Shown in pieces: positions 6,126 through 7,744 of a stretch of 64,000 bases of DNA. Position numbers and translations under genes: made by a program. Source of the DNA: Bacillus gaemokensis (GTDB lineage Bacteria > Bacillota > Bacilli > Bacillales > Bacillaceae_G); assembly GCF_001590835.1 (NCBI RefSeq), contig NZ_LTAQ01000034.1, positions 39,364 through 103,363 of the forward strand. Direction: 5' to 3'. Each line of letters starts with the position of its first letter. The first letter of the stretch is position 1. The notes below the pieces were generated by a model. It saw nothing but the letters and a program-made list of their open reading frames with translations, was not told the origin of the DNA and made no database searches.

Positions 6126-7422
6126 ATGGTATAAGACGCGTACAATCTCTCGGAAATGCACTTGCTTCTCGAACATTCGATAGTTCTAAGAACTTATATA
6201 CGAGTCTTTCTAATCCAATCCCAAAGCCACCATGCGGTGGACATCCGTATCGGAATGTATCCATATAAGACTGAAAATTTTCCGGTTGTAACCCTTTTTC
6301 TTTAAAAGAAGCAAGTAACATATCATACTCATGAATACGCTGTGCACCTGACGTAATTTCTAATCCTTTATATAATAAGTCAAAAGAGTCTGTAATAGCT
6401 TGATTTTCTTTATTTGGCATCGTGTACATCGGTCTCGCTTCTTTCGGATAATGTGTGATGAAAACAAAATCACTATTATATGTTTCCTTTACATACTTTC
6501 CAAGTAACTTTTCTCCTTCAGTATCTAAATCCCCTACTGGTGATTCTTTTCGATACTTTGTTTTTAAAATACGCTGAGCCTCTGCCAGCGTAATCTTCGG
6601 AATTTCTGTCATTACAGGAACTGTAACTTGTAAGAGATTTAATTCTTTTTCACATTTCTGTCCTACCTTTTCAAACATATAGCGTAAAACATCCTTCTCT
6701 AATGCCATCACTTCATGAAAATCTTCAATAAATCCGACTTCGACATCTAGTGATATATATTCATTCAAATGACGAGAAGAGTTATGATGTTCTGCTCGAT
6801 AAACAGGAGCAATTTCAAAAACACGTTCCAATCCTCCGGCTACCATCATTTGTTTATAAAACTGTGGAGATTGAGCTAAATACGCTTCTTTTTGAAAATA
6901 TGGGAGTTTAAAAACATTCGCTCCCCCTTCAGCTCCTTGTGAAACAATTTTCGGTGTAAATATACGTGTGAAATCGTTCTCTATAAGGAATTCACTAAAT
7001 GCCTGTACGAGTGTAGATTGAATCGTGAAAATTGCTTGTATCCGTTCATGTCGAAGTGATATGACACGTTCATTTAACATTTGGTCTAAACCAACTTGCA
7101 AGTTTCTTTTATTCACTTCAAAAGGGAGTGGCTCTGAAGTATTTAATATTTGCACCCTATCTACAAGCACTTCCACACCTAATTCTGTCTTTGTAGTCTC
7201 CACAAGTTCGCCGATAATTTGAACTACACTTTCCACGTCTACTTTATATCCAGCTAATTCTTTTTCTAATACGCATTGAATGACACCCGTTCGATCACGT
7301 AATAATAAAAAACTAAGATTTCCTAGATGACGAATTTTCTTCACCCAACCTTGCAGTAAAACCACCTTTTTACTAGACGCCTTACATTCACGAATGAGCG
7401 ACCGCTTCATTGTTTGCCCCAT
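6124..7422 (-). CDS. aspS2: Aspartyl-tRNA synthetase, archaeal/non-discriminating type (second copy)
   Basis: A 432-residue class IIb synthetase: N-terminal OB-fold anticodon-binding domain (residues 20-105), then the catalytic core with motif 2 (FEIAPVYRAEHHNSSRHLNEYISLD) and motif 3 near the C-terminus (GFGIGLERLVYKFL). It lacks the bacterial GAD insertion, so it is the short archaeal/eukaryotic type. That type usually charges both tRNA-Asp and tRNA-Asn with aspartate, the Asn form then being amidated by GatCAB. The start at 7422 has AGGAGG eight bases upstream. It is controlled by an Asp-type T-box, and the short Asp/Asn-rich reading frame at 7388..7489 overlaps its first codons. Non-discrimination is inferred from the type and not shown. 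Confidence 0.9.
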   Translation of the reverse strand: MGQTMKRSLIRECKASSKKVVLLQGWVKKIRHLGNLSFLLLRDRTGVIQCVLEKELAGYKVDVESVVQIIGELVETTKTELGVEVLVDRVQILNTSEPLPFEVNKRNLQVGLDQMLNERVISLRHERIQAIFTIQSTLVQAFSEFLIENDFTRIFTPKIVSQGAEGGANVFKLPYFQKEAYLAQSPQFYKQMMVAGGLERVFEIAPVYRAEHHNSSRHLNEYISLDVEVGFIEDFHEVMALEKDVLRYMFEKVGQKCEKELNLLQVTVPVMTEIPKITLAEAQRILKTKYRKESPVGDLDTEGEKLLGKYVKETYNSDFVFITHYPKEARPMYTMPNKENQAITDSFDLLYKGLEITSGAQRIHEYDMLLASFKEKGLQPENFQSYMDTFRYGCPPHGGFGIGLERLVYKFLELSNVREASAFPRDCTRLIP

Positions 7423-7489
7423 TATTCTTTCCTCCTATGTTTTCATATTTTTTCACATTATTGTTGTCATCGTCATCATCCACGGTCAT
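7388..7489 (-). CDS. Putative Asp/Asn-rich leader peptide overlapping aspS2
   Basis: Between the T-box terminator and aspS2 the minus strand has an excellent AAGGAGG site followed by a 33-codon reading frame. It can start at ATG 7489 or, with better spacing, at GTG 7483. It begins MTVDDDDDNNNVKKYEN: five consecutive Asp codons, then three Asn codons. It ends at TGA 7388, inside the aspS2 coding region, and its second half contains the aspS2 ribosome site. The eight bases 7508..7501 (TATTCTTT in mRNA) are perfectly complementary to 7430..7423 (AAAGAATA), which sits between the aspS2 AGGAGG and its ATG. The codon content matches the synthetase's own amino acids, suggesting a second control layer. 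That peptide is inferred and I know of no precedent. Confidence 0.55.
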   Translation of the reverse strand: MTVDDDDDNNNVKKYENIGGKNNGANNEAVAHS

Positions 7490-7507
7490 TCACCTCCTTC
7501 AAAGAAT

Positions 7508-7744
7508 ACAAAAATCCGCCCCTATAAATAGGGACGGATTTTTCCGCGGTACCACCCAAATTGTCATACTGACCATCTTAGACCTGATAACGGTAGGTAC
7601 CGTTCGCTTTTACTAATAATCACGTTCAAAGCAACACTCACAGGTGTCTTTCCATCATGCAGTATCGCAATCTTTCCAGCAGCCGATTGCTCTCTGTAGA
7701 CCCTTGCATCATGTACTTTTCCTGTTCATCACTTTTTATATTTA
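7508..7744 (-). promoter_or_regulatory. T-box riboswitch, probably tRNA-Asp specific
   Basis: The minus-strand leader has AGTA in stem I, the AGAGAG distal element, the T-box TGGGTGGTACCGCGG (7542..7556) and a terminator at 7510..7544 (AAATCCGTCCC / GGGGCGGATTT plus T-run). Opposite AGTA the strand reads GAAA-GAC-A, giving specifier GAC (7646..7648), Asp. The same GAAN-codon-A register yields Ile and Arg in the two other synthetase leaders of this window, which supports the reading. No AAC or AAT triplet sits in the specifier position. Confidence 0.88.

What the first reader, a model, noticed from the sequence alone, without database searches (positions are those of the whole stretch)
7388..7510. 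Asp5-Asn3 leader peptide overlapping the aspS2 start, behind an Asp T-box
Between the T-box terminator and aspS2 there is a strong AAGGAGG site and a short frame that opens with five Asp and three Asn codons and then overlaps the synthetase start. A non-discriminating AspRS determines the charging of both tRNA-Asp and tRNA-Asn, while the T-box appears to read only tRNA-Asp. A leader whose translation slows when either is scarce would add Asn sensing. The aspS2 spacer AAAGAATA (7430..7423) is perfectly complementary to TATTCTTT (7508..7501) just upstream of the leader, so leader translation could open or close the aspS2 site. I know of no described T-box plus leader-peptide hybrid.
Basis: partly seen in the sequence, partly recalled or inferred. 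Interest (0 to 1): 0.85.

Follow-up and report, generated by a model that had tools for sequence, protein, structure and literature searches.

The report
Aspartate-rich leader before tRNA synthetase
Just before a second aspartyl-tRNA synthetase gene, already under a tRNA-sensing RNA switch, lies a conserved tiny reading frame that opens with a run of aspartate and asparagine codons and whose start site pairs with the synthetase's own coding sequence, which suggests a second, translation-level check on the same charged tRNAs.

Summary
The leader is real and conserved far beyond the window. In 34 of 34 non-redundant Bacillaceae/Paenibacillaceae aspS2 loci (window included) a short frame lies between T-box and aspS2. 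It has a stronger Shine-Dalgarno site than aspS2, then 5-10 Asp and at least one Asn among its next 12 codons (D 222, N 79, E 5 of 408). In 33 of 34 it stays open past the aspS2 start; in the other its stop overlaps the aspS2 SD. None of 64 other aspS2 loci and none of 27 other T-boxes of one relative showed such a leader. A different, long-range helix is conserved: the leader's ribosome site and start pair with aspS2 codons (window 7494-7483 with 7404-7393); synonymous-codon shuffles pair worse (p<0.05 in 30 of 34). Best reading: T-box control of transcription plus rtpLP-like translational control, ribosomes halting on Asp/Asn codons when charged tRNA is short and leaving aspS2 free. Translation of the leader and the sign of control are inferred. 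New variant of a known kind.

The parts
7527..7738 (-). T-box riboswitch; specifier codon GAC at 7648-7646 (Asp), preceded by A (GAA-A-GAC-ACC), so no Asn codon directly before it
   Evidence: RF00230, 140.6 bits, E 2.6e-31; specifier read by eye from the Rfam alignment
7510..7543 (-). intrinsic terminator of the T-box; no other terminator-like site on this strand between it and aspS2
   Evidence: 15-pair stem and T tail
7490..7499 (-). leader Shine-Dalgarno AAGGAGGTGA
   Evidence: duplex with anti-SD -18.3 kcal/mol against -10.2 for the aspS2 site
7388..7483 (-). leader peptide frame, GTG start 7483, 31 codons MDDDDDNNNVKKYENIGGKNNGANNEAVAHS, stop 7390-7388, out of frame over the aspS2 start
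   Evidence: a leader of this kind in 34 of 34 loci
7466..7480 (-). five Asp codons (GAT GAT GAC GAT GAC)
   Evidence: codon 6 is Asp in 34 of 34 loci
7457..7465 (-). three Asn codons (AAC AAT AAT)
   Evidence: at least one Asn in the first 12 codons in 34 of 34 loci
7483..7494 (-). 5' arm (A) of the long-range helix: GGTGAATGACCG, end of leader SD, spacer and first base of the start codon
7393..7404 (-). 3' arm (B) of the long-range helix inside aspS2 (+19..+30): CGGTCGCTCATT, 11 of 12 pairs with arm A in the window
7431..7436 (-). aspS2 Shine-Dalgarno AGGAGG, in the loop enclosed by the helix
6124..7422 (-). aspS2, archaeal-type non-discriminating aspartate--tRNA(Asn) ligase, 432 aa
   Evidence: NF003483 617 bits, TIGR00458 455 bits, both over cut-off; best solved match 1n9w
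7501..7508 (-).

Best explanation
A two-layer control of aspS2 by the charging of the tRNAs that it serves. Layer 1 (known type): an Asp T-box stops transcription before the leader unless tRNA-Asp is uncharged. Layer 2 (the finding): the read-through mRNA first offers a very strong ribosome site for a leader whose first codons are mostly Asp and Asn. Inferred working: with ample Asp-tRNA and Asn-tRNA, leader ribosomes run through the aspS2 ribosome site, which the open frame forces them to cross, and hinder initiation there; when charged tRNA is short they halt within the first codons, short of the aspS2 SD, and leave it free. The conserved helix between the leader's ribosome site/start codon and aspS2 codons masks the leader on resting mRNA and is opened by a ribosome at the leader start or one translating aspS2, so that leader traffic follows aspS2 traffic. 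Shown here by sequence comparison: leader, codon content, open frame, SD order, helix. Inferred: translation of the leader, stalling, occlusion, helix function and the direction of control.
For: 34 of 34 non-redundant loci have the leader; D 222, N 79, E 5 of 408 codons although the AspRS2 proteins hold D 3.5%, E 9.8%, N 3.5%. Leader SD stronger than aspS2 SD in 34 of 34 (median -17.9 against -10.2 kcal/mol). Leader frame has a stop between codon 10 and the aspS2 start in 1 of 34 (L101, where it overlaps the aspS2 SD), against 28 and 19 of 34 in the other two frames. Leader-to-aspS2 distance 54-91 nt while T-box motif-to-leader varies 68-260: the leader is tied to aspS2, not to the terminator. 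Helix: matched mean -20.1 against mismatched -14.9 kcal/mol; synonymous shuffles p<0.05 in 30 of 34, mean z -3.12; controls near zero: aspS2's own RBS -0.01, six other offsets -0.29 to 0.31, other clade's leader -0.64; 92.8% of cells paired and covariation score 0.486, neither reached by any of 500 shuffles. Specificity: 27 other T-box matches of G001 and 3 others of the window lack such a leader; 14 of 15 pattern hits in 397 + 392 genomes sit before aspS2 or its remnant. Precedent: rtpLP.
Against: No expression data. In 5 of 34 loci (L005, L006, L102, L108, L111) the leader is in frame with aspS2, so leader ribosomes would make an extended AspRS2 there and occlusion alone would not lower output. 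Folding shows no consistent masking of the aspS2 SD that a leader ribosome would relieve (mean paired fraction 0.49 free, 0.55 and 0.51 with a ribosome; a blocked leader start made the SD less open on the median, 0.56 to 0.38). On the helix: two of the five covariation measures, those least prone to error from kinship, are only slightly raised (pairs changed on both sides 5 against 3.6, 66 of 500 shuffles as high; further pair types 15 against 13.2, 64 of 500); a locus's own aspS2 is the single best partner in only 4 of 34, relatives often pairing as well; the window's own helix is among the weakest (-14.8, one mismatch) and its region folds no better than shuffles (z -0.44); 4 of 34 loci do not reach 8 expected pairs with more 5' context. 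All leader loci are one clade, so counts are not independent.
Confidence: 0.58

Rival explanations
1. The acidic run acts through the nascent chain, not through tRNA: consecutive Asp residues destabilise or stall the ribosome early (intrinsic ribosome destabilisation), as in Salmonella mgtQ, so few leader ribosomes reach aspS2 whatever the charging state; the signal would be ribosome stability or magnesium.
For: Acidic codons in the uORF mgtQ lower its translation and raise mgtB translation (PMC8092293 passages); a D10-(GS)2-D10 linker stalls ribosomes in B. subtilis (PMC11381351 passages).
Against: D:E is 222:5 in the leader, against E about three times D in AspRS2 itself, although Glu is acidic too; Asn, which is neutral, is the second residue (79); the gene downstream is an Asp synthetase. 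The two ideas can both hold.
Confidence: 0.13
2. The leader is a ribosome-loading or coupling device: its strong SD attracts ribosomes that then help start aspS2, raising expression without sensing.
For: Leader genes close to a gene are proposed to raise its translation through reinitiation (PMC4833913 passages); the leader SD is stronger in 34 of 34 loci.
Against: That paper concerns leaders that stop about 10-11 bp before the start; here the frame runs past the start in 33 of 34 loci, out of frame in 28 of those 33, ending 20 to 194 nt inside aspS2. It does not explain Asp/Asn codons or a helix that masks the leader's site.
Confidence: 0.13
3. The frame is the start of a longer AspRS2 with an Asp-rich N-terminal tail.
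For: In frame with aspS2 in 5 of 34 loci.
Against: Out of frame in 29 of 34; a separate aspS2 start with an SD-like site could be assigned in each locus.
Confidence: 0.04
4. The D/N run is not read as protein: GAY repeats are an RNA-binding site, or a relic of shared ancestry.
For: All leader-bearing aspS2 genes form one clade, so the loci are not independent.
Against: SD, start codon and open frame kept in register, both synonymous codons used at Asp and Asn positions, AspRS2 identity to the window down to 54%.
Confidence: 0.05

Closest known systems
B. subtilis rtpA (anti-TRAP) operon: Trp T-box plus leader peptide rtpLP
   Same: T-box followed by a leader peptide with codons of the same amino acid, acting on translation of the next gene; complete leader translation prevents rtpA translation (PMC2311275 passage; tRNA-dependent ribosome stalling, PMC11255114 passages)
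   Different: Here Asp plus Asn, 5-10 Asp codons from just after the start, an aminoacyl-tRNA synthetase gene, a frame that overlaps the gene start instead of ending before its SD (except L101; the rtpLP stop position is recalled), and a helix that pairs the leader's site with the gene's own codons
C. acetobutylicum T-box control of tRNA-dependent Asn formation, two-codon T-box (Saad 2012, 2013; titles seen in a reference list; the 2013 paper is not held)
   Same: T-box with an additional archaeal-type AspRS; 9 of 26 readable specifier regions here have AAC or AAT directly before GAC
   Different: Window T-box has AAA-GAC, no Asn codon there; none of the 64 loci from outside Bacillaceae/Paenibacillaceae showed the leader (47 of the 64 have a T-box motif within 450 nt)
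mgtQ-type acidic uORF (Salmonella mgtB)
   Same: short acidic uORF with strong SD acting on translation of the next gene
   Different: Asp2 and Glu5 there rather than an Asp/Asn run; alternative stem-loops that sequester the gene's RBS; different gene
His/Trp-type transcription attenuators (also proposed for B. cereus-group his operons, PMC9413887 passages)
   Same: run of codons for the regulated amino acid in a short leader
   Different: no terminator between leader and gene here; in that study they were sought in genes without T-box or HisR
erm-type translational attenuation (recalled, no call)
   Same: ribosome stalled early in a leader changes access to the next gene's start
   Different: aspS2 SD is not consistently sequestered

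Membership tests
T-box riboswitch (RF00230) | covariance-model match above gathering score | tested here: met
   140.6 against 93 bits
T-box riboswitch (RF00230) | specifier codon matching the regulated gene, terminator downstream | tested here: met
   GAC at 7648-7646 (by eye); terminator 7543-7510
T-box riboswitch (RF00230) | binding of uncharged tRNA-Asp | not testable with these tools
   biochemistry needed
rtpLP-type T-box plus leader-peptide control | leader with SD and run of codons of the T-box's amino acid between T-box and gene | tested here: met
   34 of 34 loci
rtpLP-type T-box plus leader-peptide control | leader stop just before the gene's SD (recalled for rtpLP) | tested here: not met
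   about met in 1 of 34 (L101); 33 of 34 run past the start
rtpLP-type T-box plus leader-peptide control | stalling of leader ribosomes raises translation of the gene | not testable with these tools
   reporter and toeprint needed
Transcription attenuator (trp/his type) | terminator and antiterminator after the leader | tested here: not met
   no terminator-like site on this strand between 7510 and aspS2 (window only)
Intrinsic-ribosome-destabilisation uORF (mgtQ type) | acidic residues of either kind near the start | tested here: inconclusive
   acidic run present but Asp 222, Glu 5 of 408
Non-discriminating aspartate--tRNA(Asn) ligase | match to curated equivalog models over cut-off | tested here: met
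   NF003483 and TIGR00458; an AsnRS of G001 also passes NF003483 (376 against 353 bits), so TIGR00458 is the better guide; charging of tRNA-Asn itself not tested

The most novel reading that the evidence does not exclude
A closed translational feedback loop written in the synthetase's own codons: a ribosome translating aspS2 melts the helix that masks the leader, the freed leader loads a ribosome, and that ribosome either runs on and shuts aspS2 initiation (Asp- and Asn-tRNA ample) or halts on the Asp/Asn run and keeps aspS2 open. The ribosome thus reads the two tRNAs that one non-discriminating synthetase charges, on top of a T-box that in the window appears to read only tRNA-Asp.
Probability: 0.3. 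Interest if true: 0.87.

Novelty: new variant of a known kind. Interest (0 to 1): 0.74.

Why it matters
T-boxes are usually described as tRNA sensors that suffice on their own; rtpA was the one T-box plus leader-peptide hybrid that I found in print, in open-licence papers only and with capped listings. This would be a second, on an aminoacyl-tRNA synthetase gene, in two bacterial families, with a new part: an anti-ribosome-site in the gene's coding sequence kept by codon choice. [quoted passage not shown] It makes directly testable why a cell would sense one tRNA at two levels, and whether the ribosome supplies the Asn sensing that a one-codon T-box lacks.

Tried and rejected
The 8-bp TATTCTTT/AAAGAATA pairing: perfect only in the window; its four closest relatives (L001, L002, L089, L090) have 4 to 6 bp. 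Start at ATG 7489: too close to the SD; the GTG fits the SD and the relatives' starts. A conserved structure that hides the aspS2 SD and is relieved by a stalled leader ribosome: not found. Anti-SD artefact for the new helix: rejected, since the SD half gives z -0.35 and the spacer-plus-start half -2.84. Related plasmid copies: no match (blastn of 451 bases). In one search (frames starting up to 200 nt upstream) two of the 64 other loci gave a frame with five or more D+N: L037 is aspS2 itself, L043 a frame without SD; I count neither as this leader. One search had a wrong aspS2 start for L101; later scripts use the corrected place. Alignment A2 (9 of 16 second-clade arm pairs) came out gapped and was not used.

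Full report
What is there. On the - strand the window carries a T-box (7738-7527, 140.6 bits) with specifier GAC, its terminator (7543-7510), an SD AAGGAGGTGA (7499-7490), and a frame GTG-(Asp)5-(Asn)3-... from 7483 to the stop 7390-7388, which overlaps out of frame the start (7422) of aspS2. AspS2 matches the curated non-discriminating aspartate--tRNA(Asn) ligase models over cut-off and best matches 1n9w, a non-discriminating archaeal-type AspRS, among solved structures.

Is it conserved? All 16 from Bacillaceae/Paenibacillaceae have the leader; in the other 64 none was found (frames starting within 200 nt upstream; two false alarms told under Tried and rejected). Window, 16 loci and 17 of the genome searches give 34 non-redundant loci; 34 of 34 have the leader. 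L091 is the weakest (start TTG, MNSESDDYDDD). The first 12 codons after the start hold D 222, N 79, K 23, G 15, E 5 of 408; codon 6 is Asp in 34 of 34; each leader has 5-10 Asp and at least one Asn there. Asp is written GAT 160, GAC 62 and Asn AAC 46, AAT 33, so the amino acid rather than the base sequence is kept.

Is it read? The leader SD binds the anti-SD more strongly than the aspS2 SD in 34 of 34. Between codon 10 and the aspS2 start the leader frame has a stop in 1 of 34 loci, the other frames in 28 and 19. The exception, L101, stops with a TAG that overlaps the aspS2 SD, close to what I recall of rtpLP. The leader ends 20 to 194 nt inside aspS2 in 28 loci and is in frame with it in 5. 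The leader lies 54-91 nt before aspS2, but the T-box motif 68-260 nt before the leader (34 of 34 have the motif), so the leader belongs with aspS2. That it is translated was not shown.

Is it specific? One close relative (G001) has 28 T-box matches (24 over the gathering score); only the aspS2 one is followed by a short SD-bearing frame with a run of one amino acid (five Asp; elsewhere no run above two), the 27 others are not, and neither are the 3 other T-boxes of the window (frames under 100 aa before the first long frame were looked at). A DNA pattern for SD plus start plus Asp run hit 15 places (5 in 397 genomes, 10 in 392; the reversed control pattern hit 2): 13 lie before aspS2 (by place; one, L153, across a contig break), 1 before a broken aspS2 remnant (L148), 1 inside an unrelated coding sequence (L144). 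It missed 3 of the 16 aspS2-bearing genomes of those sets (G062, G392, G557).

RNA duplex calculation pairs the leader's ribosome site and start (-12 to +5) with aspS2 codons in all 34 loci, matched mean -20.1 against -14.9 kcal/mol for swapped partners; the own partner is the single best of 34 in only 4 loci, because relatives share much of it. In 30 of 34 loci synonymous shuffles of the first 23 aspS2 codons pair worse (p<0.05; mean z -3.12; not in L010, L098, L099, L101), and in 27 of 34 no other 69-nt window of aspS2 pairs as well. Repeated with controls: own leader site mean z -3.25 (33 of 34 below -1.65); leader site of the other clade -0.64 (38 of 204); aspS2's own ribosome site -0.01 (1 of 34); six other 18-nt offsets between -0.29 and 0.31. 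The signal lies in spacer and start codon (-2.84), not in the SD core (-0.35), so it is not a generic anti-SD. On the 18 first-clade loci (16 rows, 15 distinct) 92.8% of cells pair against 81.4% shuffled and covariation is 0.486 against 0.275, 0 of 500 shuffles as high on either; slid registers pair 31-50%. The two measures that count pairs or types, which kinship disturbs least, are only slightly raised: 5 against 3.6 (66 of 500) and 15 against 13.2 (64 of 500). I chose the register by best pairing, which favours it; the synonymous test needs no register. In ensemble folding 30 of 34 loci form at least 8 of these pairs; L001 (5.2), L004 (0.4), L012 (0.0) and L105 (7.8) do not. The window's copy has one mismatch and is among the weakest, and its region folds no better than shuffles.

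How it probably works. Relatives checked also carry AsnRS and bacterial AspRS (G001), GatB (14 of 14) and asparagine synthetase (4 of 4), so AspRS2 looks like a supplementary enzyme that can feed tRNA-dependent Asn formation; its expression on demand makes sense (inference). A ribosome covers about 12 nt beyond the translated codon (PMC4833913 passage). Held on any of the window's eight Asp/Asn codons (7480-7457) it would end at or before about 7445, short of the aspS2 SD at 7436-7431; running on it must cross that site. Hence the predicted sign: halted leader ribosome, aspS2 free; running leader ribosome, aspS2 hindered. The helix would keep the leader silent on resting mRNA and expose it when aspS2 is translated. 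The parts were shown by comparison; translation, stalling and sign are inferred. The main difficulties are the 5 in-frame loci and the lack of a consistent mask over the aspS2 SD.

Comparison with what is known. The nearest system is rtpA/rtpLP: Trp T-box, leader with three Trp codons, complete leader translation preventing rtpA translation (PMC2311275 passage; PMC11255114 passages; the original papers of Chen and Yanofsky seen only in a reference list). It works like that, but differs in amino acids, gene, overlap and helix, and the stop-before-SD feature is about met in 1 of 34 loci, so I call it a new variant, not a member. I found no paper with both aspS2 and T-box (0), and saw none describing this leader in the listings (open-licence papers only; several listings were capped). 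Saad et al. 2013 on the two-codon T-box and the 2009 T-box review were not held. All 34 leader-bearing aspS2 sequences form one clade, support 98, against 63 of the 64 others, which fits a single origin; loci are therefore not independent in the counts above.

Noticed in passing
L148 (G407:C35): A second, broken aspS2 remnant in a genome that also has an intact aspS2 (L008) keeps a T-box-like stretch and the leader MDDGDDNNNF.
   Followed up: partly
L004, L091, L102, L104, L106, L107, upstream of the leader: Extra sequence sits between T-box terminator and leader, in these loci ending in a shared GCTTTTCT stretch; it looks like an inserted repeat (by eye). Leader and aspS2 stay together.
   Followed up: no
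L005, L006, L102, L108, L111: Leader in frame with aspS2, so an AspRS2 with an Asp-rich N-terminal tail could be made.
   Followed up: no
T-box specifier region of the 34 loci: The base before GAC varies: AAC-GAC in 7 and AAT-GAC in 2 of 26 readable loci (two-codon type), AAA-GAC in the window and 14 others; 8 of 34 were not readable by my pattern.
   Followed up: partly
window 17495-17256, 4372-4123, 29158-28944 (- strand): Three further T-boxes, before an ileS-like gene, a 446-aa transporter-like gene and an argS-like gene (names recalled from the sequences, not searched); no homopolymeric leader behind them.
   Followed up: partly
leaders of 14 of 34 loci, codon 4: A Gly at codon 4 (MDDG..., VNDG in L101) is kept in the 12 Paenibacillus-side loci, one Cytobacillus (L012) and Ectobacillus (L004); reason unknown.
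   Followed up: no
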